NCBI GenBank assembly: GCA_921293015.1
Contig: OV121094.1
Coordinates: 3,648,764-3,712,763, forward strand
Source: Phorcus lineatus
Lineage: Eukaryota; Mollusca; Gastropoda; Trochida; Trochidae
DNA: 64,000 bases
Reading direction: 5' to 3'
The position numbers were made by a program, and so were the translations under genes. Every line of letters begins with the position of its first letter. Positions within the stretch are counted from its first letter, which is position 1. Below, piece after piece: positions 737 through 62,220 of this stretch. A model generated the notes under the pieces. It did no database searches. It was not told the DNA's origin and was given only the letters and a program-made list of their open reading frames with translations.

Positions 737-3700
737 CTGAAACATGAAAAGACAGAACTTCATTTAGGCGCTATTTATGTACAAACATCATTAAACGAAT
801 GAAGTCTGATACGAAATTCATAACGTTGATACGCAGAAAAAGCGAAAGGTAAATGTATTAATCAAATTTCTGAGTAGGTTATGAAAAATGTCTTTAATAA
901 AAAAATGACAGCTTTGTGAAAATCTGAGGTAGTCATTTATGTAACAGTTTCTTATTTCTGTTCACCTGTTATATTTAACTGCATAACGAAGTCCGCCATT
1001 TTCTGCCGTGATCCGAACGATTGCCACGGCTTTCGTTTTGACTGGGTTTCCGCGCACGTTGCGCCCGACAAGTAGCGCAATGAACTCTGAAATGAAAGTG
1101 TTGAAATCAAAGGTTAGACGCTTTTCATCTCGTGAACAAAATTACATTTAAGAAAGTTTTTATTGAAAGGCTACGATGGTTCGCAAATTGCTGTTTTGAA
1201 TACTTATTTGAAATTAGTTGAATTATCTCATTTAAGGGCGGTTCAGAAAAATTAAGAAAAAATAAGAACTATATGATGAAGTAATAACTGAAAAACATAT
1301 CTAGGTTCTTTTAAATGGATCATCGAAGTTTACTTGATGTTTAGTGCGCAAATTAATAATGAAAATCAATGATTGATATTCATACGACTGTATGAAATAC
1401 TGTGATATCAGCACAAGTTTGTAAGCTTTTAGCAATTAGATCAATATAACATAAAAGATTTGAAAAAGTGGGGAGAGCTGTGCTGATGAAATCGGTTTAG
1501 CATAGTCCATAGGTTTGTAAACAGCAAGAACAAACAGCATCAGTTATTGGGCGTAAGTTATCGGCAACAAACAATAAGTTGTACATGTACTGCAGATAAA
1601 ACATTTTCGAAACACTTCAATTCGGATGCTTACTGATGAATCGCAAGAAATGAGTGAAACTTCGAAGTCTTGAATTGCTTGAACATCGACTAACTCAAAT
1701 AGCATTGCCGTGATCCAGTTCCAATCAAATCCGCCATTTTGATTCTGTGATCAAACAGCAGTTGTTAATGATACAAAGAGGAACCTTCGTAAATCATAAC
1801 TTTTTCTCTTCAGGGTGAGAGGTGAGGTGATAAGGAGTTTAACGCGTGTAGAACTGTTCTCTACTGCAGACAAAGTTGCCGAGCCCCTTGCGGGCTTCGA
1901 ACCACGGACCTCTCGAACTGAAGCCGAACGCGCTAACCATTGCGCTATCCCGCCCCTTCAAGCTGAGAAGAAAATTCCATTGTTACTATGGAAGGGTACA
2001 TTCAAGTAACTGCTACCTGTTCATTTGTCGATGATTATGAATTTGCAATGTTCTCTTCAAGCCTAATGAACTTATAATTGAAAGGTTATTTACCTCCCTT
2101 CACCTCTTTCTCGTGTTCATCGCGACTAACAAGTTTATCTTTCTTCTTGGGTCGACCGCTTATGCTGTACTTGTCCTCAAAACTGGAGTCTGAAAAAATG
2201 TTGTTATTTTGAAAGAAGGAGATATTTAAAAACATGATAATTCAAGTTATAATATCATTATTTCAACAAGCTGGTGTGAGCGGAGATATACATATCACTT
2301 GTAAAATATAAAATGACATTTTCCGGCGACTACCCAAGATGTTATTGTAGTTCCATCAAAAAGCATCACTTAGAAGATACTATTAACCAAACAACTACCT
2401 GCGATTGATGATATGTGCTTTAAGATTATCTGAAGGTTGTAGCGTGAGGTCATGATACAAAGTTGGAATGTGAACATGAAGCATGAAATGAGATAAAACG
2501 GCGCCACCCCCTGCTCAGTGACACCGACATATTCAACACTGCAGAGCGAGAGTACGACTAGTTGTAACGTAATCGCTACATTGGGTCACTTCCTAGATAC
2601 GATGAGCAAACCAGAACTGAGATGAAGAACCTCCGCCGTTTCGTCTGCCAAATTTGTTTTAAAGTGGGTCGAGAGTACGACTAGTTGTAACGTAATCGCT
2701 ACATTGGGTCACTTCCTAGATACGATGAGCAAACCAGAACTGAGATGAAGAACCTCCGCCGTTTCGTCTGCCAAATTTGTTTTAAAGTGGGTCGAAATGT
2801 TGATAATGACCATTTTCTAAGTTGCAGGCAAGCAGGATCGAGTAAAGATATTATTAAGCAAGATTAGTTGTTAAGGCATTATCACAAGTGCCATGTATAC
2901 AAATTACACGAAAGATGATACTCTTGGGTGTTCCAAGAAATCTGGAGAAACGTTATCTGCGAAATGGAGGTTAGGATTATGTAATTATATTGTTACCGTC
3001 GTGACTTATGTTCATTCAGTATACTTTTTCCCTAAGCACAAGTCAGGACATCTATATATTAAAAGAGACATCTTATAATCCCACCCACAGTGACTATGAA
3101 ACAGTGCTGCAGCCGATTAAGGTTATTTTCCGTGTCACCAGCTGAATAAAAGATGTGTTATTAGGAAATCCCTTTAATCGAAGGAGATGCAACACGTTAC
3201 GAACGGGCACTTAAAGAGTTAATGGTTTTGTCGTACATGTGGGTGGTCTTACGCCGATTAAACAAATATCAAACGAAACATGTAGGATTATTTTTGCGAA
3301 ACTTTCTTCAACATTCATACACAAGGTACGTTTAAAAGTAACCTATCATCTGGCCATGCTCCAAAATTATCAACAATAACGAATATTATCATGGCCACAT
3401 TACATAATCCACTTTTTGCAAAGCAACCATTGTGTTAAACAAGCTATTCATATAAAACCCAGGTGCAAACTTCCACGTTGAATACAGAATAAAATATACA
3501 AGTATGTGAAACGAGGCCTTTTCTACCTTGGAACAGTACAGTATTATGTTAAAGCAGATTTCAATTCAGCGTACATCATTTATAAATAAAGGGATATTAA
3601 TGTAATAGGGTCAGGCCGACATGTCGAGGAATATTTGAAGGGTTACCCTAGATTTTGTATGTATACATCTAAAGAGGCAGGTCTATCTGATACGGTTCGC

Positions 3701-6700
3701 CTTGTTGTTCCGAGGGAAAATGACATAAAATAGCGATGTAGTTTTACTAATTTCCAACATTATAAACACTCCCTCTAAACCGACATCCTTCTAGTCAGAC
3801 ACTCACTTTAGGGCATTTAGTTATTTCCAAATGTGATTTTTCAATGCAAGAAACTTCTTAATCCGACAACCCGACAATCCAAAGAAAAATTCTAACCAGA
3901 GGCAGTATCGGTATAAAGAGCGAGGACATGTATTTACAATACGTATACATACACCTGTCTGATGTATGATGTAAAACGTAAAGTTAAACCTACCTTCCCC
4001 GGGGCAGGTCTTGCAGCATCTTTCCTTCACCAGGATTGGACTATCACATTTAGGCTTTGGACATTCATTCTTGATATTTTTACATATAATCTGCCCCTTG
4101 AGCTGTAGAATTCCTTTCTTCTCGATCTGCGGGTATACAAGTAAATAGAAAACAAATATTAATTTGAAAACGCTCTGACTTAAAATGATTACTAGGCCTA
4201 CTTTTCTTGCAAGTCCTGTCATGGCAAAAATTCTATAAAAAATTTTTTTGGTTACTTAATCACTGTTAGGGATCGTTTATCATATTTAATGTCTCAATCT
4301 AACGAATCGGTAAATTTACCATTAAGGATGAATTTATTACTCAATGTCGTTCGTGATACCAGTAGCGTCAGGGGATTAAAGCAAAACACAATCAATCAAT
4401 TTGCAGCTTCCGTTTAAAGCTGTTATAAATATTTATAAGGGAGCGGGCCTGACAGGTAAGGCTTGTATCATCATGTAGGTGTTTATACCTGCTGTAGTAT
4501 GTGTCTTGTTTATAGGTGAAATGCTGGCAGGTGAACAGCGTTCTGAAGGGCCAGGTAACGTCTGACTCCTTGTCAGTTACTCGCTAATTGGCTTTAATGA
4601 TATCAACGAACGACGCTTACCGTATGAAAGGGAGGGGGGGGGGGGCTGGTGTGGGAGGGTAAGGAGACCGAGGTTTTAGAGTTAGAGAAAGATTTAGTGA
4701 GGTGAAGAAGAGACATGCGATAAGCAAAAGGGAAAAGGGAGAGGGATAGCGGAGGAAGAGGAAAGAGTTGTAAAGGTAGACTTTGTGAGACCGGCCAAGG
4801 AGAGAAAGGGTTTGGGGGAGAAATGGATAGAATTAGGGAGGTTTGGCAGGGACAAACGAGGAGGTTTAACCTCAGGCACATGTGAGGGCTGCTGGTATTA
4901 TGGCAGGGAGAAGGTCCGCAACACCATTGTTGCTATGCATTGCAGTGAAACCTGCGCGCATCGGCTGGAACTAGCGAACCATCGGTGATACTGCACTGAA
5001 TTTCAGTGTACCGTTGTACTGCGTGTAGAACAGTTTTCGACTGCAGATTCGAACCACGGACCTCTTGATCCGAAGCCGACCGCGCTAACCACTGTCCTAA
5101 CCCGCCCAATAGGCAGTTAGAGAATGCAAGGAGAGTTTGGGGGAGCCTTAATCATTTAAATGAAAAGTGTACACAAATGTTTTGGAGCTATGCAAATTCA
5201 AAATACACCCACCATCTTACCCTGTCCTTTTGTCCGGAGGTGATGAATAGATATGCAATAGATTACACCTACTAGTACTCTACTTAAGATAGATATTCTT
5301 TTTAACAAATGTGAGTAATAAATTTACACTTATTATGTTTTGAAGTGTTTGTGATAAAGAAGGTTTATCAGGTTCATGAATGTACCATTTTATCTTCACA
5401 TGAGTATTTACATATATATCCATACAGTACTTTGTTCGCCGAAGGAATTTTTATTTATATAGTGTGAGAGCAAGTGATTTATGTTGACAGGACAAATCGT
5501 AATTATCATAAAAATCACATAGAATTAAAATGAGTTCTTATGCTGCAGGCGACAGAATAAACAGTTTTAATCAGATAAACAAAGATCTTTCGTGTTGATC
5601 TTTTGAATCCAAATTGAAGACCATTGACCAATTTTACGAGTATGCATGAATAAGAAATGCAATAAAATCTTAGTTAATTATATAAAAATGTTTTATATCA
5701 ACTACTCGAGAAAAAAATGCAAGGGTGACTATATATTCTTTCATAGTTGTATATTCATATACTATAACCTTGATTAGAACAAAATGCAAGTTTATGCTTG
5801 TTTAAGTGGATAAATCAAAGATGTGCATAAGTGATGGTCAAATGTGTAATATATATATACATAGTCCAAATTGTTTATACGAGTGTTACGCGTAATGACT
5901 GTACTGTTGTGTTTGTGTCCACCTACATTGCCACTGCTTTGCGTTCATTTGCGGTTATTTTGCGGTCAGGCGCGATCAGAGTGCAATCTGAATTCATTCG
6001 ACCGCGATCTGAGTGCAATCTGAATGCATTCGACCGCGATCTGAGTGCAATCTGAATACATTCACTACAGGTAAAGATATATGCAACCCACTGTACCTAC
6101 CATGTGTCCAGCCCGATACGTTGCAATTGCATGTCATGTTAAAATACTCTTTTTTATCATATCAAAATTATAAAGGTTGATAAGACAAGTTACAGGAATA
6201 GAAAAAAATCTGATAAAATAAAAAGCAGTAAAACCTAAAGCAACTGACAACGATAGCATCATAACAAACCGGAGCAAAATTCTAACAAATATTGTTTTGT
6301 AAACATGTAAGTCTTTGTTGCATTCAAAAGGAAAACAATACTAAGATTTGGAACAGACTGAAATTGCTGGCAATCATTAGTTGTCGATTACACAAGGTTG
6401 TTGTCCAAGGGCGATATGTAAGTGGTTACACACTTCCAGATGTATCCTAGATATGTTGGTATAATATACATCGTGCATGGTAAGAACACAAGTCCTAAAA
6501 TAAGCATACAAGTCACGAAATCATGAAATACAAATCCTTCGAAAATAAAGAACTATAACTTTCACTATTTAAGTAGCAACCTCAAATCTACCAGTTAACA
6601 ATGCCTTCGGCGTATCTTTTCTTTATATTTTTAAGTGAAACCAAATTTGATGTCAATTGTTTCTAAGGACTCGATTTTATCTTAAACACCCTGAAAAGGT

Positions 6701-9700
6701 GTTTCAACTCAGATAGATGTACTAGAGTCAGTGCAAACTGGAAACGTCCATCAAGCGATGGGAAACCAGTGAAGCATAAAACGCCACCCGGATAAAGCAG
6801 TGGGGTTTCATATCGGCAATTATCTGGTTACTCGGCTGAATAGATCCCAATAAATGCTCCCTTCTACAGCAGGGAAGAAGACACTGAATTAAACCCACAA
6901 ATGACAGTATCAGCCCCGAATTTACGAAACGGGACTAAATTGAAGAAATCACTGCTATAGTAGGTTGCGTGCAAGAAAACGTTAAAGTGAGACCGTTTTC
7001 ATTGCGGTGACCAAACCATGACTGAATCTGACATGGCTTGGCCTATCTTATGACGACTTTTGGATTAAATGGCATACTTTGAGATCAAATTTGAAACGAA
7101 ATTGACACTTTTGGTGACAATGTGGCACCATGAGTTATTGGGATGTAAAGTGAGAGAGCGCAATACGAGAGATGAAAGAAACTGGTTATGTTTATATACG
7201 GGAGGGAGCCACAGTGGTTAACGCTCTCCGTCGCGGATCAGAAAGTCTGGGGTTCGAATCTCGAAGGTCAATTGGTGTCTTCGGTTTAACAACATTGCAT
7301 TGTGGTGGAGTATCTAATGGGCCTCAATGGGATATTTCAAAAGGTTGTTGTTGTATGTTACTCTAAGGCTTTAGGTCTTATGCTAGTTCCTTTTGCCCTA
7401 CAATTACTTGAGCTGTGTTACTTTGAAATTGAGAATCGAGAGAGAGGGACAAACACAGAGTGAAAAGGGAGAGTGTAGCGAAAGAATCATGCATGATCCA
7501 ATGACTGACATCAATATTAACATGTTTATCACTGGTATAAAACGAAATCCCTAATTAATTAGTGTATTTATATAGCCCCCATATCCACACCGAATGCATG
7601 CTCAAGGCGCTCCCTGCATTATTACCCTGGTCTAACCCAAGCTTAAAGGGCACCTCCAACACAATGTGGTGAACAGAGGCACATTTGAATGATGTCTCTT
7701 GCCTAAGGAGACACCGCAAGCTTCTAAACTCGTGTTTCAGTGTTGGGCAGGGAATAACCCTTGGACTCTCAATTCATACAGCAATGATCGGGTAACCCAC
7801 CCATTCTGCGAGCCACGCCAGATGTCGCTGAACTTCACTGATAGCGGTCAACTGAGCTACGCACAGGACAACGTGCCACCACTTATTCTCATACTTATTT
7901 CGGGGAGGTCATATATGATCCAAGACCACTGTTCGCTAGAGTAAGAAGAGCAAGGCATACAATACTCTGCAAATAGTGAAATTAGGCCATCAAAGTTACC
8001 CATACATCCAGAATGTCCGTCAAAGGCAAAGATCAACTTATCGAGTTTATCTCCATCTCAACATTGTCATACTATAAGTGTACCGTAAGAGCCTTCTCTA
8101 CTGCGCATGTACACAGACCCGAAGGGAATAGCGGAGATAGGGTAAGCGTTGAAAAGGGGGCTTATGGAAAGGGGTTGAAAAGTGGGTCTGCAAAGGGAGG
8201 GTTGGAAGCTGGAGAGGTATTTGACGGGGTTGAGGAGGGGTAATAAAGGTAGTAGTTTAAAGGTACTTTATTCGGAATCGAATTATCCGATTTTGGATAT
8301 TCACAAAAATATAGAAATTTCGTTCACGGTGAGATGATGGGGTGATTTGGGGTTAACGCCGCTTTCAAGACTATCTTACTTATATCATGGGTGCTGGTTT
8401 CATTGAAGCGAGAAAACCCGCAAAACCGTTATGGCTATACATTGCGGTGAAACTTGCTAGAATCGTCTAAAACTAGCAAACCATCGGATATTTCGTTCAA
8501 GAACTAGCTATATGTTATTTATTGATAAAAGAAAGAAACGAGCTGTTCTGGACAAGACAGGTAATGGTAATACGAAAAGAAAAACTTTTTTTGAAAATAG
8601 TTTTATTTTCATGATTTTATGAATATACTAGAAAGTAATAGCTAAGAAATTACACAGGACATTCATCTACAAGTGTATAGCATATTTCCTGAACTAAGGC
8701 TAAAAAGTTCATTATGGTAATTGGATTTCAAAATGTTCTTTCCTCCTTTCCTCATGATGTTACAATAATTTTTTTACGCAAATATAATCAGCTCCAAGTT
8801 GACTACACTGATTAATTGATTGATTAACTAGCAGATATCGAATTTAGTTTTTATAATTGGATTGTATTCTGTTTAACCCTAACTTGTCAAATGATAAGTT
8901 AGATTAGATATCAACGATAAAAGCATTATACTAGTCTAGCTTTCTTGGCGTTAGATTCACAACATCTGGTGTTTGATAGTGCAAGATTGTCTAACGTAAA
9001 AAATGAAAGAAGTTTATCATAACCTGTAGTTGAAACTAGTTTCAACTTGGACGCGTTTGTAGAAGTATAATGTGTATCACATTAAATAAACTAGCTTTTG
9101 TAAAAATTCTCTCACATATTGTTATTAGAATGTTTTTAAAAAAACGTTTTGCATGCATTTAATGGGTTCCCTACATTTGAATAGAGACGTAAATCGGACA
9201 GGTGCGAACACAAACGACTACTAACTCTGAGAGATCAGTTAGATAATTTATGAATGGGACATGTTTAGAGATGAAAATGGTATGTTACAATACTTTTAGC
9301 TATGTATTACTGCCGCACATTATCTAGTTGACAGATGTTACTTATATAACATATTCCTTAAATTCCGTCTACCATGAGGGGTTTGCAAAGTACAATGAAC
9401 GTTTTCTATTTCTCAGATGTCTGGTGAATAACTCTATTATCTATCTCTTTGGATGTATATGCCTATGTAGTTATCATGTATTTTTATATCATGTAACACC
9501 TTTGTACGTATCATTCTCGCAGGAAACCAACAGTTATGAAAAAGGATACGAGCACTTTTAAATAATGTGTGAAGTGCACTTAAGAAGCATGTTGATGACT
9601 TGACGTGTGCATATTTACTTAAAGATAAGGCTTGTTCCACGCAGAGACATAGCCCCTAGCCTGAAGTACATCTTTTGATATTGAAATGGACGTGTTGCCT

Positions 9701-12700
9701 TCTCTGAAACAGTTCATGGCACATCACACAATAAGGCGAATTAAATTGCAACGCGCTGATCTTAACAGGCTAATGTCCATTTAAATGATAACTTCTTGAT
9801 TTTACACTTTACCCCAAGAAGGATATGATTTAGCTCTGACCCTTCGACCTCTGGTACTCTCTTTAACATAATAAAAACTGCTGATAAATATTTTTCAAGT
9901 GGGACTAATACCTTCAGTTTTATAGTTTTTCTTCCCATGGTGTCGAGTTGGTATAATTATTTGGTTGATATGCATATATGCCTGGTTTGCATATGGTACC
10001 AAGGTATGTCATTTCGAGCGGTTTCAAATGAAACGCGTTTTACCCACAATAGACATTCTTAAAATAGTATAATTCCTACTCTTGGAATGGAATTGCATTA
10101 TCATTAAATTATTCAAACCATACTAATCTGTTCATACATTGATAAATCATACAGCAACTGGTGTCTGAATGTAATTAGATAATAGAGAATGCAGAACATT
10201 CGGTAATGAAAACTTTCACTTTCATTTATAAAAATGACTCAACGCTTATAATCTTTAATTTTGTGAAACACATAAAGATTCCCAATGGTTTAAGTGTACT
10301 TAAAAATCCATTGTAAAGTGGCGTTATGAATCGTGATAAATTTACACCTCAATAACATGAAGTATATCTCGAATTTACATAGAAACAGAATATTGTAACA
10401 CACATAAGAAAATTTACTTTAAAAAAAATGTTGATTCGCATGGTATTATTATGAGTTGTACGTTTTTAAACAGTATCAAGTTATATTATTAACGAAGGAA
10501 TGAGAAGATTGTACCAGGGAGGGAATGAGTGTGTATACCGCCGCTTTGTCAGTATTTCAATCGTGTTAGGAGGTTGAAACCCTTCGTCTGTATAAGTAGC
10601 AGATCACATAGCAACATCGAGTGAGTTGGGGTTTAACGCCGCTTTCAAGATTATTTCACTTATATCGCGGCTGCTAATATTACTGGGAGAAAGAGATTGT
10701 GGCTATGCATTGCGGTGAAACCTGCGAGCATCGGCTGGAATTAGCGAACCAGGAGTGGTACTACACTGAAACCCAAACCTGAATGCGTGTAGAAATGTTC
10801 TATATTGCATATAACATTGCCGAACCATGGGCCTCTTGATCCGAAGCCGAACGCGCTAACCACTGCGCAATCCGGCCCACATAGCAACGAGGTGTATTAG
10901 TTATTTGAATAGTTGGTGATGGTTAACCATTTTCATTCATTCCAGTACTGCACATAACATTAATCTCTGCCAAGATTACAAACCTAATTTCCCTTGAAGT
11001 TTAATAACAATTCAAATCTACTGGTTAACGAGGGCTGCTCTTATATATGTGACATGTTCAAGCTTAAGATGTATTAATCCACGAGGGAACCCCGTGGGGG
11101 GGACAATTGTGTGAAGTAATCCCAATGAACAAGCCTCTTCACTACCCTAATCCGTCACTAACTACTTGGAACATGCGGTACAATGCCCTTTAATCCACCG
11201 TTTACTTTGTACGACCACTCACACCTCCGTTTGATTCCCTGAACGTTTTATCACACCTTGAGCGATAATCTTATCCCCATAAGTTAGGGGGGTAATTCGG
11301 CTTCCCTCCCGAGAACGTGCCGCAAGAGCGGTAAGGGGGATTAATCCCCCCGAACTTGCCATAACGCAGCAAATCACATCCCCCTCCAAAACACTCATAC
11401 GACTAGTAAGTGTCCAACCAATTGGCACTCACCACCAGTTTTTGTCAACGGTGTTCTAAGTTAGTTCTTAAGTGTCATGTATAAATGAGGAAATAGCGTT
11501 ACTCGGAGAAGATTTATCGTTGAATAGATTTTAATTTGCAAATTTATTGGGTTTTTACTTTAAGACATTTTTAACTGATGCACATTTAAAATGTCGACGT
11601 TACAAGCACTATCTTGAACTTGGGTATCAACCAAAACATCGAACAAGATAACGACGTTCGCACATAGGAATTCGAATATGAAAAGTAAAACTGGATTTTA
11701 CTATGTTCTTGCATGCGGAAAAAACAATGCGAACAAATATGAACTAGTCAATATACCCTGTCTCGCCGTAAGTTTCAAATAATTGGATAGGTGAGCGCCA
11801 CGTCATTGAGTTAAGAATTGAAAGAAAGCTTTATGTTTGACGTACAATTACTAGCCACGACTGTACACATCAGCATCAAACTAAGTAAGACACTAACATG
11901 TACTACATTAAAGAAACAGTATCATGCTCTAGGAAATTATATTTCTTCAATATTTCCCATAAAGATAACAATATATACAGAATGTATTGTCTTCAGTAAA
12001 TGAAACATCCAACCCAACTATCCGTGGGTCCTATGAGAAATTATCACAAATAGAAAGGAGACTGAATGCGGCCAGTTATAGGGTGGACCCTTCTATTCAT
12101 TTGAGTAAGGGAATTTGATACACATACATGTAGATTATTCGCCCTCTGTGCATAAGTTTACGGCTACCGTTTATTGATGAAAAGTACTGTTTTGCAGTTG
12201 ATAACATTTGTTTTCTTTTCCGTAAGATCACTCTTTTTCTCGTAGAAAACGTGCTACATTATCTTTAAATATAGAACATTACAATGATATAGAAAGTAAG
12301 TTTATTGGCAGATATAAGAACGATTGTCAAAAACACCGGAATGCTAAAGGTAGCGAGAGGTTGCGGAGAGATAGAGGTAGATGGATGATGAATACTGGAG
12401 ATAGATGATTTAAGACAGATATCTGACATGGGGGGGGGGGGGGGGGGGGGGGGAGGGGTGGGGGGTGGCGATAGCAACATGAGCTGCAGATTGAGAGGAG
12501 ACAATGTTATGACTGTTTACAATATGCATTTACATATAACAGACATACATAAAGACAATGTTGTCTCGACAAGGCATATCAAATTGACTGATCCTGGGAT
12601 GTATTTATATGAAACTATTTTTGGAACACAAATAGTATGGCGATTCGCCTGTGTTCTGCGTTTATTAAGTGATATGTGTCAACGGTTTCAAGAACAAAGT

Positions 12701-22486: not shown

Positions 22487-22500
22487 GTATCTTGGAAGAG

Positions 22501-22550
22501 TGAGTTATTGTTTAACGCCGCTTGGGCAATATTTCAGCCATTAGCGGCGA
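22501..22550 (-). mobile_element. 50-bp hairpin mini-retroposon with target-site duplication
   Basis: Fifty bases lie exactly between two copies of GTATCTTGGAAGAG (22487-22500 and 22551-22564). On the minus strand the insert begins TCGCCGCTAATGGCTGAAAT, and its ends pair (CGCCGCT with AGCGGCG) over a short loop. TTAAAC and AATAACTCA follow. It matches the 3' end of SINE family A and the separate copy at 57456-57514, which starts at the same base. Confidence 0.8.
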
Positions 22551-22564
22551 GTATCTTGGAAGAG

Positions 22565-24939
22565 TATTCTTAAAAGGTTATATCATGTTTCATCAATAAA
22601 TGTCTACACTGTAGTAAATAGTTCTGAACAATAGAGAGTTATTGTGATATCTTACTCTTTGAAGTTCAAGTACATACCAATATTTAACTGTTAAGTCTTA
22701 GTTAAACATTTAGTCTATCTTTTCGAAATACAGCATAATAATTATCATATTTTATATCCGTTACATATCTAAAACATTTTATCAATATCACCATTAAAAA
22801 GCATTACAGCAACTTTTTTTGTTCGTTACGACGCAATTCACATCATTAAGACTAAGTAAAACCTGAAATGAATTTGATCCACTGATGATAAAAAGCCGAC
22901 GTTCACATATCCTAAGTTCGTTACATAAATGTCTCAGCATTAATCAATCTTGAAAATGTGTGAACATGATATCTCAACACGGCGATTATCACACTGCCCT
23001 AATTAAACACCGTTGTGTTGACACTAAACCATAGTCGCTAATGATGTCATTGATATTAAGTAATTGAACCGGTTGCGATTGGCCGAATTGATTACGATTT
23101 TGTTGGGGAAATATTTCTTTGACACATTTCAAAGGTGGAAATTTCACACCTTTCATATAAATAATCTGCAGTGATCCCTCTTTTCAACGGCGTTCAATTC
23201 TGGTTTGCGAAAATGTTTTCTTAGCAATTTGTCCATGTTAATTCGGTACCACTGTAGCAACCAGTGGCTAAAACAAACATGCTTAATGTAAGCTCGTTGA
23301 AAGACAGGCGAGGTTCTCATGTATGCGTAAATATAAGATGTTTCCTAAGCAACACTTGCAAACAGAGGCTTATTCTGTAGTTATACAGTAAGAACCCGTA
23401 ATTTAGAAACTTCAAGAATCAACGGTGCAATGCAAAAGTGAGGTTCATTGCAGTACTATTAATTGTATACAAGTTCAAGCCCATGTTTAAAAGTTTCAAA
23501 ACAATATCCTCGTTAGCATTTAATTGAAGAACTGATATACAAATATTCAAAAATAATCATAGATGGAGATTTGAAGAAAAGAAAAATAAAAGAAGATATG
23601 ACCAAAGAGTTAGTTGGCCTAGCTTTATGGTCTAGTCTTATATGTTAGCCTAGGAATTGTATACAAGCATCCGTTACTCAAACTTTTGAAGGCTCGTTAA
23701 ACTCCAACTGGATAAATGTCATGGATAATTATATCTGAAACAGTCTAACGCTGTTCCGCTCCAAAATACATATACTTTTACTGCAAAATTCTGCATCTAT
23801 TTTATTATGTTTACAGTTACCTTAATTACCAGATAATTAACCAAAAACGCACTGCTTGAATACACATCTTAAGATCCTTCTAAGTATGTTATTCATTTGT
23901 TGCAATTATAACATCTAAATTAAACTTTTCCTTGTTCTATTCCACATTTAAGAACTCTGAAAATGTGTATATGGCTTACAAATATATTTGGTTCCAAATC
24001 CATTCCTAAAAGAATCCCAATTGGAACCCAGTGCATAAGAAAGGCATAATCTGCCTCAACAACAAGCACTATATTGTAATTTTGAAATGAACACCCCTCT
24101 TTGTAAGATGACAGCAATGAAAATGACATCAAATCTATTTCTGTTCTATCCTTTTCCAACATCGAAGCACGAGTCATTAACTGTGCTCGGATACTGCCAT
24201 CGTGCATACATCACTAATTCCTCAAGTCATCTTCTCCTAGAAGAAACCTCTTAATGGACTTTATATCGTCTTTGTAAAGGCACAGGACCATTGAAACTTT
24301 ATACATGCTTATGATCCTTGATGTGTTATTGTAAACTGCTGACACTAGCAACATAACCTGAGATAGCATCGACTAAGAAAGTTCATGCCTCAGTAACATT
24401 AAAGCATGGGTCGTACTCTGAATGGTATACGATTATGTGAGCCTGTTTTGTTAGACATTTTCTTTCCATAATCGATTTTTGACACATTTGGCCGTGATTA
24501 ATTGATTATACGTTTTTTATAATTGCATTAATCATATTTGGGACGCATCTTAATTTTTATATCACGGTATACAAGTAAATGGACCTTTTCAATCTATAGC
24601 GTGCACGCAGACTTCACGAAGCTACCAATAGAATATCCGTTAACTGGCTTGCAGCTACAAATAATTTCTAGCATTTAAAATATAACTAATTTACAATGTG
24701 AAAGACAAAAAGACAGATCATGATGATAAAATATTCACAATAATTGATAGTAGAGATACATGTAAAAACTTTAAAAAGCAATTAACACCAACCAAATTTT
24801 GATTTGATAAAGAATCGAATCTATTGATTATCTACGGTGATGTAACATTAAAAATGCAGTAGCACGATTTTAACTTTTTTTATTTCTTCCCAAAGAAACA
24901 TTAGTTTAGGCCAAGTGTGTTTTCTTCAGAGTGTCAAAC
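22565..24939. other. AT-rich, no supported gene
   Basis: A 95-codon minus frame at 23920-24207 has somewhat better composition than its surroundings, but I recognise no family in it and no splice context. Nothing else is seen. Confidence 0.4.
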
Positions 24940-25200
24940 ATCTCATTACTCGACCCGGGTATCCGTAGTCGTTAAAAAATTATCAAGTATCAAACAAAAA
25001 CTATACTGCCGGCCATTTTTGTGTGAACACTTTTTAATCATTTGAGGAAGGGAAATGGATAATCAAAACTTAACTGAACATTATTCATTCGATTTAAAAC
25101 TGTTTCTTTTGATTAAAAACACTGCCTTGCAATTGGTAATATTTATTTTCGTTTTGGTGATATAATTTTATTTACCACATAATCGCTACCGTCCCTTCAA
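24940..25200 (+). repeat. dispersed repeat family R1, copy A
   Basis: Shares an ordered series of blocks with the copies at 35415, 46281 and 61948 (the last inverted): GTGTCAAACATCTCATTACTC, TATCCGTAGTCG, GTGTGAACAC.TTTTAATCATT, GCCTTGCAATTGGTAA, and the end GCTACCGTCCCTTCAA. Identity is moderate, so these are old copies. No open frame and no clear target-site duplication. Confidence 0.65.
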
Positions 25201-33020: not shown

Positions 33021-35414
33021 AAACTAAGTTATGTGTGATATTTTTTCTAGAGGAATTGAAGTAATTCTCTGTTCCTTCACATCTGGTGTAGTTTTTCAAA
33101 TGTTCATAAACAATTTGCACATCAGAGTTTTTTCATATGAACGGGTGACATTTGACGAAATACATATATCTGTACAAAGGAACAATAGTTGGTGTACATA
33201 CCTTTGGATACTTGAGAGAAGGGCCTTGAATGTAGGCTGGAGAATATTCCCATATCAATACGTGACATTATACATATGTAATTAATCAATAGCTTATGTT
33301 TTTACAAAACATTTCAACTAATGTTTATAACCGTCGTTCGCATGCTGTGTCTTACCTACGAGATCTCTATTGCATCTGTATTTACAAACCAACAACCAGT
33401 TAGGAACCTGCCATGCTGTTTATTACGTATAATCATATCACGTTAATCAAAACTATCCTGTAACAACTTCATGTCCTGCTGTTTAGGAAATACATGTTAT
33501 TGAAATATTTTTGAAAAATGAATGTATGATTTGAAATTGTCATATCAGTTTCGTTGGAAGTGTAGGTGAAATTGTTTTAAAAATTGTAACATCGTGTGAT
33601 TATGATTTTGAAAGAATATATATGTTGCAAAATGACCGAAGCAAAACTCTAAAATGGTCAACAAATTCACAGATTCTAGTAATGTTTTGAATTGAACGGA
33701 CGAATATTTGAAGTTTAATTTCCAAGATAAATTCCCAAACAAAGAAATGGAAAAAAATGATTTACTTTGAAAGAAAAGTTACATCCTTTTTACACTAAAC
33801 TAACTTAAAAGGGTTTTGAATCAAATCGTGCCTTATCTTATCTGAGCTGATAAGCTGTATTGCCTATAGATACACACATGCTTATCTTTCAAACAAAACC
33901 GGTAATGATGAAAACGGAAAAGCCAAGTGTTATTTCTCCAGCAGTGCTTTTAATGATTTCATTCTTTTATCAAGATTCAAACCTGATCACGAAATAAATT
34001 AGATCAAACTTCGATTATGCGCACAACAAATACCGGAAGTGAAAGCCGGAAATAGAAAGATAGCAGTGTCGCAGCTGGGAAAGAGCGATTTCGGTGATGT
34101 CGGAATAACAACGTTTTTTGTGAGTTTGGTAGTTTTAATTAGTTGTATATTCTCAGCCAAATCATGTCTTAATTAGTGCACTTGAGGTCACGTGATTTAT
34201 AGAGCACGTGTGTGAGGGTGTCTGTGATGAATCATGGGTAAAACTCCAGCGGTTGGTACACCTGTAAAGATGCACGTGTGCTTGTGAAAGGTGCGAAATG
34301 TGCGTTAATTTTGACCCCTTAGCGCTGGTTTTGGTTAATTTGAGGTTCATCAAATGTTATTATATTTATTTTGGCTTCAACCAACGTATGTTTATGGGTC
34401 TGGAGTCGTCTCCTCATCAACATTGTTCACCAATTTGAGGTTTGTTTAAAAAATCGACCTCCATGGAACTCGTTCGTACAATTGAGTGATTTTCAAATGT
34501 ATCTGTATAGAATATACCATACTTGAGTCATGCATAGGTTTACCAGGGCTTGATCTTTATATATCCTGACGGAAAGCGGAGTGTATATCGATTTGAGGCA
34601 CGAGGGCCGTAAACATAGTCCTGCCAGTAGTAATCTATGTATTACCAAGTCAATTATGCAAATTAGCACAAAAGATCAGAGTAACGCTGATACTGTCGAT
34701 TTTGAGGGGCTGCTATGCATTTGCAGTAGCATTTGGTATCTTAGTTCATTCATTTAGTGATTCATTCATCGTTTGAAGCACAACATTGATGTGTATGTCA
34801 AAATATTTGCAATGGTTCATCAAACATAACAGATTAGAAATTATGTGAAAAATAAAATGACGTCTCCACCCGAAGATTCAATTGTTCATATGAATAACCC
34901 TCTTATTGCCATTGACGAATGTCCAAAACATATTAGGCTGTAGCGGAGCACAATATTATATTGAGTATAAAGTTTCACTTCTGTAAATGAAGAGGTTTCT
35001 CATATGTATATCTTAAGCACCTGTGTTTTCTTCAAGTGTCATTATGCACAATAGTAGTGTTGATTTCTTTGAAGTGTCATTAATCGCATGTAAAATATTG
35101 TCCTTAACATTTCACAAATACATATAGAGAATAATCAAAGCTGATTTATTTGTTTTTATACAATATTCAAAAACATTTTATTTCATTACATTTTAATGAT
35201 TTGCCGGAAGAAATCACCTCAGAGGTCTGGAGAAGTACACATTTGCTGTTGATTTTCAAATTTTAAAAAAATCACTTTCAGAATTTGCTGCTTTGCAATG
35301 ATTTTTAAGATTTTATAGAAAAAACATAGAGTTTGCAAGTGTATATAAAAGGTACCAAAGCACGTGTTTGAAATATTTTTTTGTTAAACATGTCCCCATT
35401 AACAATTGGTTTAT
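33021..35414. other. no supported coding sequence
   Basis: Apart from the promoter-like cluster at 34032-34278, no exon, RNA gene or repeat was recognised. Confidence 0.4.
34032..34278. promoter_or_regulatory. promoter-like cluster: two ETS sites and three CACGTG E-boxes
   Basis: ETS-type sites ACCGGAAGTG (34032) and GCCGGAAAT (34045) are followed by three canonical CACGTG E-boxes at 34189, 34205 and 34273; the first lies in GTCACGTGAT. An ATG in good context (34236-34238, AATCATGGG) opens MGKTPAVGTP and then meets a GTAAAG donor-like site. No downstream exon was identified, so the gene, if any, is unknown. Confidence 0.35.
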
Positions 35415-35665
35415 GCAAATTTTATTTTCTTCAGAAATATAAATCATACCATTTCTCAACCCTATTATCCTTACTCGTCGAACAGGATGTCAAGTATCAT
35501 GCTAAAACTCCATGCGCCCATTTCAGTGTGAACACCTTTAAATCATTTGAGTAAGGGAAACCGAAACCGAAACCGAAACCGAAATTATTATTTTTGTTTG
35601 AATAATTAAAAAAGATTGTCATTCAATTGGCAGCATTTCTTTTGAGATTTCATTCGTTTTGTTGA
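35415..35665 (+). repeat. dispersed repeat family R1, copy B, with a hexamer array
   Basis: Shares CTATTATCC.TACTCGTCGAA, GTGTGAACACCTTTAAATCA and CAATTGG with the other R1 copies. It contains a short perfect array of AAACCG (35557-35585, between four and five units) where the other copies have unique sequence. Confidence 0.6.
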
Positions 35666-43076: not shown

Positions 43077-45275
43077 TTGAAAAGAAATGTCCCCTTAAAT
43101 ATTGATTACACAGAAATTATTAGAAAATTCTTTTATTCTGAATTCCAGGAATTTGTTAAAGACGTGGAATGTAGTACATCTCTACAGATGACGAATGGTA
43201 CTCTGGACGAGCTCATTTCTGCTTACAACAGCGGTTTTCAAAATCTCATTGACAAACATGCTCCAGCACAAACGAAAGTTATCACACTTCGACCAAACGC
43301 CCCGTGGTACAGTGATGAACTTCGCGAACTCAAGCACAAACGACGTAAAGCCGAGCGACTCTGGCGGAAGACTAATCTTGTTGTACACCACCAGATGTTA
43401 AGAAGTTTATGTCAGTCATCTCACAAACTGCTCTTAAAAACTAAACAGGACTATTTTTGCAATAAAATTATCGAATGTGGAACTGATTATAAACAACTCT
43501 TCAAAATCAGCAAGAAACTAATGGGACACTCCAACGAAGTTATCCTGCCTAGCTGTTCATCAGACAAGTTACTGGCCAACACGTTCAAGGATTTCTTCAC
43601 TGATAAAGTGAAGAACATCAGGAACAGTATCCAGTCGGATGGTTCAGATATCTCTACCTTGACTTCAGATGAAAAATTCAATGGCGAATATTTGGCTAGT
43701 TTCTCTCCTGCTACAGAAACAGAAATTCGCAATATCATCATGAAAGCACCTCCTAAATCGTGTGAATTAGACCCGGTTCCCACCCATCTGTTGAAGTTGT
43801 GCTTGGACAAAGTTCTACCATTAATTACAGCCATCGTCAACTCATCCCTGGAGGAGGCAACTGTTCCGCAGTGCTTCAAGGAAGCATTGGTGAGACCATC
43901 ACTGAAGAAAGCAGGCTTGGACAAAGAAGTAATGAAACACTATAGACCTGTCTCAAATCTGGGTTTTATCTCCAAAATTGTTGAGAAAGTAGTATTTTCT
44001 CGCCTAAACCTGCACCTCCAAGTAAATAACCTCCATGATAACTTTCAGTCTGCATACAGATCTGATCATTCGACAGAAACCGCACTCTGGCGTGTTCATC
44101 ATGATATCGTGAAGCAACTAGACAACAAGAACGCAGTTGCAATGGTGTTGATTGACCAATCAGCGGCTTTTGACCTTATAGATCACGAAATTCTGTCAAC
44201 GAGATTGCAGTATAGCTACGGTGTGACTGGTGAAGCTCTGTTGTGGATTCAGTCCTATATGTCTAACAGAACACAGAGGGTTGTAGTGAGATCAACAGCT
44301 TCTGACAGCATGGAGATTCAATTTGGTGTGCCTCAGGGATCTGTCCTAGGACCAGTCCTATATTGCCTGTACTCAAAGCCTATGAGTAACATCTGTCAAC
44401 GGCATGAACTGCCCTACATGGTTTATGCGGATGACCATCAAATGTACAAGGTGATGAATCCACAGTATTCTTGTCTACTCGCCACGAGAGCACTAGAGGC
44501 CTGCATGTCAGACATCATTCACTGGACTGGTTCCAACAAGCTTAAGATCAATGAGGAGAAGACTAAATTCATCATTTTCAGTTCTAGGAACTCTCGTCTT
44601 GACACCACTGACAAGCAAATACAAGCTGGTAACAATTCTGTTCGAACCGTTGAAACCGTGAGGAACTTAGGTGTTCAATTTGACCAACATCTCACCATGG
44701 AGAAACAGGTTAATATGGTAGCTAAGTCATGTTACTACCAGATCAGAAGCATTGCTGCCATACGTGGTTACATCACTGAAGAATGTTGTAAGACCCTGGT
44801 ACATGCTCTTGTCACATCAAGATTGGATTATGGCAATGGACTTCTCTGTGGACTACCTGATACTCTCACCAATCGCCTACAAAAGGTCCAGAACTGTGCT
44901 GCACGACTCATTACCAGGACAAGCCGACGGCAAGAGATCACGCCTGTCAGAGAGGTGTTGCACTGGCTCCCAGTGAAACAAAGATGCCAGTATAAGATCT
45001 TAACATACACCTACAAGTGTCTCCATGGCATGGCACCAAGCTACTTACAAGAACTTGTGGCCCCATACTATCCTGCTAGGACATTACGATCTGAATCTGA
45101 GTCCCTCCTCTGTAAACCCAAGACACGCACAGTGATGTATGGTGACAGATGCTTTGACAGCATATCAGCCAAGCTGTGGAACACACTTCCATTGTATCTG
45201 AAAGGCTCATCCTCACTAAACATTTTTAAGAAAGATCTTAAAACTCATCTTTTTAAAATAGCCTATTCTGCATAA
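43077..45275 (+). CDS. LINE reverse transcriptase (L2/CR1 clade), N-terminally truncated, frame intact
   Basis: A 732-codon frame encodes the reverse transcriptase that copies the element's RNA into the genome. The N-terminal region (1-230) has the [20 protein letters not shown] linker that normally follows the endonuclease domain, which is absent. RT motifs follow in order: [18 protein letters not shown] (about 288-305), [15 protein letters not shown] (323-337), motif [15 protein letters not shown] (357-370, catalytic Asp360), [10 protein letters not shown] (417-426), and YADD (450-453, catalytic pair). The C-terminal DYGNGLL...[12 protein letters not shown] region is typical of CR1/L2/Rex relatives. 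The residue after SAAFD is L rather than the usual T or S. The ATG used is probably just the first one after the truncation. The long frame without stops suggests recent insertion. Many copies must exist elsewhere in the genome. Confidence 0.88.
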
Positions 45276-45410: not shown

Positions 45411-45447
45411 AGCGCCTTAGAGTGTTTTAATAAGCAGATAAGGCGCT
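45411..45447 (+). other. 3' hairpin of the LINE
   Basis: AGCGCCTT and AAGGCGCT form an 8-bp stem with a 21-base loop, followed by ATATAAATG and the (ATT)n end. Such 3' structures are the recognition part for LINE reverse transcriptases. SINE family D (7560-7890) carries a similar end. Confidence 0.7.
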
Positions 45448-45480
45448 ATATAAATGTTGTGTATTATTATTATTATTATA

Positions 45481-46280
45481 TAGTAACCGTAACTCTTTGC
45501 TTGTTACTAATTACATTGTGATAATCAAATACAATTTGTTTTAATTTTTTCTTGGTTTGAGAACATTTTTCTCCAAATGTTCACACGTATGAAATGACTC
45601 TGACAAAACAAAACAAATTCCTTCAATATGCCATATCTCTTTCACGTATACCATATTACTTATTTCTTCCGAATTGAGAAGTATCTATCCCTTCAATCAA
45701 ACAGGGCTAGCCCCAAAGCCCCCATTCCACCGATAGTTCTAATCAATGATCTACCATCCGTGATTATATATATATATTCCAAGACGTATACACACGTCCT
45801 TGATCTATCAATAACTTTGTTCAAGCAGTTCAATAGTAAACGAAAAGGCAATTTTGTGTTATTTTCCTTCAATATGCACTTTTCAAGTGCAGGAGATCAA
45901 AGTATGTCCCAAGGCATTTCAGTCATTCTTCAAAGAGCCTCATTACCGTCATCCGCTAATCCTCTTTCTCCGCCGTGACCAAATGAAGTAATGGATCACA
46001 AATTCTACAAATGAGTGTCAGCGCTTTCCTATTACACCTGTTTTAATCAATTGATCACATAACACGGTTTATTAGAGGTATATCGCAGAAGGGTCCCTGG
46101 CTCTGTTTCTCACCAGGCATTCCATTTTTAACCAAAGTTTTACAACTAAAATTCACAACTTATTAACTAAATTACAATTATCTACGTTATTCTGTGTCAT
46201 TTAATTCTTTAAAAGTAGCACGGATTTTGAAAAGTTCATCTCCCATTTGGTTTTCCAAATAAACATACGTTTGTGCCAAA
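45481..46280. other. no supported gene
   Basis: AT-rich. The 116-codon frame at 45628 is unrecognised and has no splice context. Confidence 0.4.
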
Positions 46281-46562
46281 TGTATTATCTTCATAGGGTC
46301 GAACATCTTGATGCCAGACATGATCGTCCGTTCTCGTATAGAAAATATTATCACGTATTAATCAAGAACCACTGGCGGCAAATTTTGTAGGACAGCCTTT
46401 AATCATTTGAGGTAGGCAATAGATTCGCTTAGCTTAAGTTAACATGGCACGTTCAATTTAGATTTTTTTCTTTTGATTATAAAACATTGTCTTTCAATTT
46501 GTAATTTTAGTTATTGTGAGATCATTTTATTTATTTTTAAAATATGCTACTGCCCCTTTAAT
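46281..46562 (+). repeat. dispersed repeat family R1, copy C
   Basis: Shares GGGTCGAACATCTTGATGCC, CTTTAATCATTTGAGGTAGG, GTCTTTCAATTTGTAATTTTA and the end TATGCTACTGCCCCTTTAA with copies A, B and D. Diverged and noncoding. Confidence 0.6.
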
Positions 46563-50859: not shown

Positions 50860-51106
50860 TCTCACTTAACTTCTACTAGTATTGTTTCAGGGAGAAAGCC
50901 CGCAAACCATTGTGGGTAAGCATTGCGATGAAACCTGCGAGCATCGACTGGAACTGGCGAATCATGGCTGGTACTGGGCTGAAATTCAGTGAAGCATTGC
51001 ATCCAAACCTTACTGCGTGTAGGACAGTTCTCTAGTGCACAAAAAGTTGGCAAGCCCCGGTCGGGATTCAAACCCCGCACCTATTAATCCGAAGCCGAAT
51101 GCGGGG
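50860..51106 (-). mobile_element. SINE family A, diverged copy
   Basis: Follows the same order as the full-length copy at 10616: CTCACTTAACTTCTACTAGT, GGGAGAAAGCCCGCAAACCA, GAAACCTGCGAGCATCGACTG, GCGTGTAGGACAGTTCTC, and at the right a tRNA-like head with a degraded A-box. The hairpin tail is missing. Confidence 0.7.
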
Positions 51107-57442: not shown

Positions 57443-57455
57443 TCATTTGCCACTG

Positions 57456-57514
57456 TCGCCGCTAATGGCTGAAATAATATCCAAGCGGCGTTAAACAATA
57501 ACTCACTCACTCAC
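57456..57514 (+). mobile_element. 59-bp hairpin mini-retroposon with target-site duplication
   Basis: The insert starts TCGCCGCTAATGGCTGAAAT and ends with AATAACTCACTCACTCAC. It is flanked by TCATTTGCCACTG (57443-57455) and TCATTGGCCACTG (57515-57527), 13-bp repeats with one mismatch. The stem CGCCGCT/AGCGGCG is conserved. It is the same unit as at 22501-22550, in the opposite orientation and with a longer ACTC tail. Confidence 0.78.
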
Positions 57515-57527
57515 TCATTGGCCACTG

Positions 57528-61947: not shown

Positions 61948-62220
61948 AAGGGGCAATAACACGTTTTTCTAGGTCAGATCTCACGAAATCTTACCAATTG
62001 CAAGGCAAACAGTTCTAAAACGAAAATACCATGATCATTTAAGCTATGCAAATTCCTTTCCCTACTTTAAATGATAAAACGGTATTCACATTAAAATTTC
62101 CGCCAGCAGTTGTCGCCAGATACTTTATAATGTCTTCGACGAGTACGGATAATAGGAAGGAGTCATGAGGTGTTTGACTCTCTTAAAATGATGCATTTGT
62201 CATAAACATACTTTATTGGG
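61948..62220 (-). repeat. dispersed repeat family R1, copy D (inverted)
   Basis: The reverse complement aligns with copy A over most of its length (GAGTCAAACACCTCATGACT, CTATTATCCGTACTCGTCGA, AACTGTTTGCCTTGCAATTG). On the plus strand it starts TTTAAAGGGGCAATAAC. Confidence 0.68.

What the first reader, a model, noticed from the sequence alone, without database searches (positions are those of the whole stretch)
22487..22564. A complete 50-bp retroposed unit with its own 14-bp target-site duplication
The 50-base insert is exactly bounded by two perfect copies of GTATCTTGGAAGAG. It is only a hairpin (CGCCGCT/AGCGGCG stem) plus a TTAAAC...ACTCA tail. Random 5' truncation of a longer SINE could give one such copy, but the copy at 57456 begins at the identical base. 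The hairpin plus tail may therefore be a mobile RNA in its own right, far shorter than typical SINEs, or the place where reverse transcription regularly stops.
Basis: partly seen in the sequence, partly recalled or inferred. Interest (0 to 1): 0.7.

Follow-up and report, generated by a model that had tools for sequence, protein, structure and literature searches.

The report
LINE tail hairpins inserted alone
The 50-base unit is the last hairpin and tail of a larger jumping gene (a LINE), and in this genome that scrap seems to be inserted on its own again and again, cut at nearly the same base, far more often than longer pieces of the parent element in the copies read.

Summary
Confirmed, and much larger than the window. 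The unit's 3' 24-mer has 1,269 exact copies in the 958-Mb genome (control 0). I read 138 copies chosen only by 3' sequence: in 87 a target-site duplication ends within 5 nt of the hairpin's 5' base; 11 continue upstream into a LINE 3' UTR; 14 start inside the hairpin; 26 have the hairpin arm but no duplication ending there (one row refiled by eye). Exchanging right flanks abolished the signal (68 of 91 against a mean of 0.0). The parent is a LINE with RT and RNase H. LINE variants reappear in solo units, so the units come from LINE RNA more than once. Random truncation is rejected as the main source. In sample A, 81 of 90 copies reaching the stem base stop there (15 of the 81 without a matching duplication). 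Templated sequence ends 1-2 nt outside the stem; further bases do not match the LINE (0 of 11). I favour a template RNA that really ends at the stem base (trimmed or cleaved LINE RNA); a programmed reverse-transcriptase stop is the main rival. A SINE with a similar tail showed no solo unit (0 of 9), a small control.

The parts
22501..22550 (-). Solo unit u1: stem-loop (arms 22543-22549 and 22516-22522) plus tail TTAAACAATAACTCA (22501-22515; CTC continues to 22498)
22487..22500 (.). Target-site duplication of u1, copy at the 3' end of the unit
22551..22564 (.). Target-site duplication of u1, copy at the 5' end of the unit
57456..57517 (+). Solo unit u2: same stem-loop, same first base, longer (ACTC)n tail
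57443..57455 (.). Target-site duplication of u2, 5' copy (12 of 13 bases match)
57515..57527 (.). Target-site duplication of u2, 3' copy (overlaps the tail by TCA)
10619..10877 (-). Comparison element, not part of the unit: tRNA-headed SINE with a similar 3' stem-loop and tail, flanked by an 11-bp duplication (10605-10615 and 10878-10888)
   Evidence: the tRNA-like head is my reading of the sequence, ARAGORN called no tRNA
8342..8483 (-). Comparison element: copy of the same SINE, 5'-truncated in its body, duplication 12 of 13 bases

Best explanation
The unit is the solo 3' stem-loop and (ACTC)n tail of a LINE that carries reverse transcriptase and RNase H (I-superfamily type). The LINE's endonuclease and reverse transcriptase insert it by target-primed reverse transcription. 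In most cases the RNA being copied already ends at the base of the stem: LINE RNA is trimmed from its 5' side, or cleaved, down to the protein-bound 3' stem-loop, and this 50-60-nt stub is what gets copied. Shown here: the units, their duplications, the sharp 5' end, the LINE parent and the match of solo variants to LINE variants. Inferred: the machinery used, and the existence and making of the stub RNA.
For: 1,269 exact copies of the 24-mer. Of 138 copies read, 87 have a duplication ending at the stem base, offsets -5 to +2 with a mode of -2 (L242 refiled by eye). 78 of 86 duplications scored are perfect, the modes are 12 and 13 bp, and 61 of 86 overlap the ACTC tail by 1-3 nt, as expected if the nicked target anneals to the tail. 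Flank exchange: mean 0.0 of 91 against 68 of 91. LINE parent: RVT_1 E 1.5e-32 and RNase_H E 2.7e-8 in neighbouring frames of one copy. Of 20 LINE ends read, chosen by hand to cover prefix types, 3 have GAATGG, all 3 with T before the stem; solo GAATGG units carry T or G, never A (0 of 9, against 62 of 88 for TAATGG; Fisher p 5e-5). So the base outside the stem is copied from LINE RNA. Copying ends there: in the 11 copies with 3 or more bases between duplication and stem, the third base is G 6, A 4, C 1, T 0, while the LINE has T there in 86 of the 100 places listed out of 207 (hand count).
Against: No RNA data: no 50-60-nt RNA has been seen. Extra untemplated bases also occur at ordinary LINE 5' junctions (recalled), so they do not prove that the template ended. 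The eleven informative prefixes are few, and 14 of 31 two-base prefixes are neither CA nor CT. 26 of 138 copies with the hairpin arm have no duplication ending at the base. A second variant link, GCTCA with A (2 of 2 LINE ends, 13 of 15 solo units), is not significant against other T7 solo units (50 of 76; Fisher p 0.14). A protein-bound upstream RNA segment could give an equally exact reverse-transcriptase stop.
Confidence: 0.55

Rival explanations
1. Programmed reverse-transcriptase stop. The template is full-length LINE RNA, but the enzyme, anchored to the stem-loop through its tail-binding region, usually lets go just after copying it, leaving hairpin-only insertions.
For: Stringent-type LINE proteins bind the 3' stem-loop (PMC4176376, passages), so a special event when the stem has been copied is plausible. 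The stop is sharp, and solo units of more than one LINE variant share it. The bases at -1 and -2 are often LINE-templated.
Against: No scatter of templated ends at -3: 0 of 11 have the templated T. When the enzyme reaches the 5' base of the stem, the stem has already been unwound, so no structure remains there to block it (inference). The SINE with a similar tail shows 0 of 9 such stops, but its helper LINE may differ and nine is few.
Confidence: 0.35
2. Independent ultra-short retroposon: solo units are themselves transcribed and copied as a family of their own, borrowing the LINE machinery like a SINE without a head.
For: 91 solo to 9 LINE-linked copies in sample A; 39 of 127 solo copies share an identical 27-nt left part.
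Against: Solo variants and the base outside the stem follow LINE variants. No Rfam family or tRNA gene was called in the window, and I see no promoter in 50 nt (not tested). Transcripts of a solo copy would carry flanking DNA on both sides.
Confidence: 0.08
3. Ordinary random 5' truncation of LINE or SINE copies; the shared start of the two window copies is coincidence.
For: Ordinary truncation does exist in the same genome: LINE copies with duplications ending at -45, -59 and -283, further LINE copies whose similarity starts at -19 and -39 without a confirmed duplication, starts inside the hairpin (14 of 138), and the truncated SINE at 8483.
Against: The stem base takes 87 of 138 copies, or 113 with the copies that have the arm but no matching duplication, in a few bases, while all longer LINE copies together are 11 of 138.
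Confidence: 0.01
4. A DNA transposon of MITE type whose inverted repeats are the stem.
For: Short inverted repeat, many copies, flanking duplications.
Against: Duplication length varies from 9 to 18 bp; a variable (ACTC)n tail lies outside the hairpin on one side only; the same hairpin ends a LINE.
Confidence: 0.01

Closest known systems
Stringent-type LINE 3' tails (UnaL2, ZfL2-1, ZfL2-2; PMC4176376, passages)
   Same: 3' stem-loop followed by a short simple repeat at the end of a LINE, the part the LINE protein recognises
   Different: Here the stem-loop and tail are inserted alone, in most copies read, with a nearly fixed 5' end; the parent LINE has RNase H. Protein binding was not tested
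SINEs with a LINE-derived 3' tail (PMC3747384, passages)
   Same: Short, non-autonomous, flanked by duplications, LINE tail at the 3' end
   Different: No tRNA, 5S or 7SL head found; about 50-60 nt; arises more than once from LINE RNA
5'-truncated LINE copies
   Same: Same parent sequence, same 3' end, same kind of duplication
   Different: Truncation is normally at various positions (PMC3747384, passage); here one position dominates
Short LINE-derived retroposons of trypanosomatids (SIDER, TSIDER1; listing only)
   Same: Short non-autonomous relatives of a LINE clade (ingi)
   Different: Those retroposons share a 79-bp signature (start of abstract of PMC2323293), by my recollection at the 5' end; this unit has only the 3' hairpin

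Membership tests
SINE | 5' head from a Pol III gene (tRNA, 5S, 7SL) | tested here: not met
   Unit begins at the stem base; no tRNA called in the window, no Rfam family at gathering score
SINE | 3' tail shared with a LINE | tested here: met
   LINE copies end in the same stem-loop and tail
SINE | Target-site duplications of variable length | tested here: met
   86 scored, 9-18 bp, 78 of 86 perfect
5'-truncated LINE copies | Truncation points spread over the element | tested here: not met
   Sharp peak at the stem base; only the LINE-linked minority is spread
5'-truncated LINE copies | Derived from the 3' end of LINE RNA | tested here: met
   Hairpin variant GAATGG and base -1 go together in LINE and in solo copies
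Stringent-type LINE tail | 3' stem-loop plus simple repeat | tested here: met
Stringent-type LINE tail | Bound and required by the cognate LINE protein | not testable with these tools
   needs a binding or retrotransposition assay
I-superfamily LINE (parent) | RT followed by RNase H | tested here: met
   RVT_1 E 1.5e-32 and RNase_H E 2.7e-8 in adjoining frames of one broken copy (L192)
I-superfamily LINE (parent) | Placement in the clade by an RT tree | not tested
   the clade name is recalled
MITE | Terminal inverted repeats at both ends and fixed-length duplication | tested here: not met
   Variable tail outside the hairpin, duplications of 9-18 bp
Retrocopy of a discrete small RNA | Copies start at the 5' end of a real RNA | tested here: inconclusive
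   Sharp start and untemplated extra bases fit; no RNA data

The most novel reading that the evidence does not exclude
LINE mRNA in this animal is routinely reduced to a 50-60-nt protein-protected 3' stub, and that stub, not the full-length RNA, is the main substrate of the LINE machinery. It would be a promoterless mobile RNA shorter than any SINE I know of (recalled), made by RNA decay or processing, and could be a route by which bare LINE tails, raw material for new SINEs, are seeded across a genome.
Probability: 0.5. Interest if true: 0.82.

Novelty: new variant of a known kind. Interest (0 to 1): 0.72.

Why it matters
LINE copies are usually described as truncated at various points. Here one nearly exact point, the base of the 3' recognition hairpin, accounts for most of the insertions read. 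That gives a natural readout of what the LINE enzyme is handed as template, a direct way to tell RNA processing from enzyme drop-off, and over a thousand genomic copies of the tail to study it with. It may also bear on how SINEs acquire LINE tails.

Tried and rejected
Other collections: pattern scans of viral contigs and genome contigs gave 0, 68, 0 and 5 stretches; in the flanks printed I see no copy of the hairpin, so I take them for chance matches. The L2-like LINE in the window (ORF 43077-45275; clade recalled) was considered as the parent and rejected: its tail is a different hairpin followed by (TTA)n. The tRNA-headed SINE as parent was rejected: similar tail but a different left arm and loop. 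As a control, 9 tails of that SINE type (up to 2 mismatches in the right arm, ACTC or CTCA behind it) were found in 324,627 fetched bases, which are mostly flanks of target copies and partly overlap: 8 run on into the SINE body, 1 is too decayed to tell, 0 are solo. Independent self-copying family: lowered. Random truncation: rejected as main source. The binomial p value printed used a denominator I had not derived and is not used. Similarity start points are not all truncations: L099 differs from the reference beyond -94 but carries LINE coding sequence further upstream, and four copies break near -247. A larger control on the SINE tail, counts for single solo variants and a random genome sample could not be run. 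Papers: the searches listed no title or abstract start on a LINE-tail-only unit; the main mollusc SINE papers are not held, so this is weak evidence of absence.

Full report
OBSERVATION. The 50-base insert lies at 22501-22550 on the minus strand between perfect copies of GTATCTTGGAAGAG; the match can be read as 15 bp. The second copy, 57456-57517, starts at the same base and has its own duplication, 12 of 13 bases. The two copies are 94% identical over 50 nt. Both fold into a stem-loop whose 5' base is the second base of the unit. Nothing in Rfam reached its gathering score in the window and no tRNA was called.

GENOME COPIES. The window belongs to a 958-Mb genome in 74 contigs. The 24-mer AGCGGCGTTAAACAATAACTCACT, which covers only the right arm of the stem and the tail and so leaves the 5' end free, has 1,269 exact copies (605 + 664; reversed control 0). 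I read the first 100 listed, all on contig C1 (sample A, L082-L181), and 38 of the 40 matches to a longer 3' pattern, all 38 on other contigs (sample B, L216-L253; the other 2 are in A). Limits: exact matching favours young copies; A is one contig; B holds one tail type; about 1,130 copies were not read.

FIVE-PRIME ENDS. file the 138 as: stem-base start with duplication 86 (66 of 100 in A, 20 of 38 in B), LINE-linked 12 (9 and 3), starting inside the hairpin 14 (10 and 4), hairpin arm present but no duplication 21 (11 and 10), arm present with a best duplication elsewhere 5 (4 and 1). One LINE-linked row, L242, is a solo unit by eye (duplication ending at -2), giving 87 and 11. Duplication ends in the 86: -5: 2, -3: 9, -2: 31, -1: 24, 0: 14, +1: 5, +2: 1, relative to the first C of CGCCGC. 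Exchanging right flanks between copies gave means of 0.0 at the base, 0.1 inside and 7.7 upstream of 91, so the 4 upstream calls are within chance. A relaxed cut-off gave 76 of 91 against 2.8.

PARENT. In sample A, 9 of 100 share the same upstream sequence. Behind L099 lies a frame with RNase H (Pfam E 2.7e-8), preceded by a frame with RT (L192; RVT_1 E 1.5e-32). A shorter RT piece stands before L179 (L194; RVT_1 E 1.8e-8). No tree was built; the I-superfamily name is recalled. A pattern for this LINE 3' end just before the stem has 207 matches in the genome; it uses another filter than the 1,269, so the two counts are not a ratio. Of 29 LINE ends looked at, three have a duplication where LINE similarity begins, at -45, -59 and -283; similarity in two others begins at -19 and -39 without a confirmed duplication; many reach the end of the stretch fetched.

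RATES (my arithmetic). In sample A, 10 of 100 start inside the 27-nt left part, about 0.4% per nt. Among 9 LINE-linked copies 3 end between -6 and -100 (L095, L131, L175; the first without a duplication), again about 0.4% per nt. At the stem base 81 of the remaining 90 stop, if the 15 with arm but no matching duplication are counted as base starts (66 of 90 without them), where about 2% would be expected for five bases.

ORIGIN FROM LINE RNA. Twenty LINE 3' ends, chosen by hand from the list to cover the prefix types, were read. Three have GAATGG, all with T just outside the stem; two have GCTCA, both with A. Solo GAATGG units have T 6, G 3, A 0; TAATGG units A 62, T 21, G 3, C 2 (Fisher p 5e-5). 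Solo T7/TCA units have A in 13 of 15, but T7/CCA units have it in 50 of 76, so this second link is not significant (p 0.14). The first link shows that the base outside the stem was copied from LINE RNA of the same kind, and that solo units arose more than once.

WHERE COPYING ENDS. Between duplication and stem the commonest strings are none (20), CA (15), A (11), T (8) and G (5) of 86. CA and A continue the main LINE sequence CTCA|CGCCGC. Where three or more bases stand there (11 copies), the third is G 6, A 4, C 1, T 0, though the LINE has T in 86 of the 100 places listed (hand count). So templated sequence seems to end at -2 or -1, and further bases, often G, are untemplated. This fits a reverse transcriptase running off an RNA end. 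G could reflect a cap, which is recalled and only a lead. Against this, 14 of 31 two-base strings are neither CA nor CT.

INSERTION STYLE. Of 86 duplications scored, 78 are perfect, the modes are 12 and 13 bp, and 61 overlap the ACTC tail by 1-3 nt, as in target-primed reverse transcription with annealing of the nicked target to the tail. Tails of solo units (median 16 nt of exact repeat, n = 66) are a little shorter than those of LINE copies (median 20, n = 9).

CONTROL ELEMENT. A SINE with a tRNA-like head in the window (10619-10877, duplication of 11 bp) has a similar stem-loop and tail. In 324,627 fetched bases, mostly flanks of target copies and not fully independent, 9 such tails were found: 8 run on into the SINE body, 1 is too decayed to judge, 0 are solo. 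Nine is few, its tail repeat differs and its helper LINE may differ. A genome-wide count did not complete.

MECHANISM. Shown: a defined unit, its duplications, its LINE parent, origin from more than one LINE variant, a sharp end. Inferred: insertion by the LINE's own machinery and a template ending at the stem base. Proteins of stringent-type LINEs bind their 3' stem-loop (PMC4176376, passages), which could both protect a stub from trimming and deliver it to the enzyme. The enzyme-stop rival explains the same peak but would be expected to leave some templated ends beyond -2, which I did not see in 11 cases.

NOVELTY. Known parts: stem-loop tails, SINE-LINE tail sharing, target-primed insertion (PMC3747384, PMC5135761, PMC4176376; passages). 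Not found in the listings of the searches: a LINE tail inserted alone with a fixed 5' end. The main mollusc SINE papers are not held, so a prior report may exist.

The RT frames, first read by eye, were confirmed with Pfam; L099 was removed from the truncated LINE copies, which lowers the upstream loss rate to about 0.4% per nt; the GCTCA link was tested and is not significant.

Noticed in passing
window 43077-45275 (+) and 45411-45450: Another non-LTR RT frame (Pfam RVT_1 E 1e-28) followed by its own strong 3' stem-loop and a (TTA)n tail (-20.2 kcal/mol, z -4.01); whether it also gives solo hairpins was not tested.
   Followed up: partly
window 10619-10877, 8342-8483, 4926-5108, 1841-1955, 50909-51039 (-): A SINE family with a tRNA-like head; the copy at 1955 looks internally deleted, with the head region running into a GTTAAACTCC tail-like sequence.
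   Followed up: partly
window 11955-12238, 24888-25173, 35393-35583, 46253-46295, 62057-62167: A further dispersed repeat family (repeat sets D10, D13, D16, I1), not identified; that they are one family is my guess from their positions.
   Followed up: no
window 2547-2792: A perfect 123-bp tandem duplication (two identical copies), possibly very recent.
   Followed up: no
window 3821-4222 (-): A 133-aa frame with a weak Pfam match to Amnionless below its cut-off (E 9e-7).
   Followed up: no
L193 1170-2156 (+): A 328-aa frame of an inhibitor-of-apoptosis type protein: two BIR stretches (E 1.1e-31) and a C3HC4 RING finger (E 2.9e-10).
   Followed up: partly
L196, L197, L201, L212 near -247 from the stem base: Similarity of four LINE copies to the reference copy begins at almost the same place, -245 to -249: an indel in the reference copy, a LINE variant or a second preferred end; not examined.
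   Followed up: no
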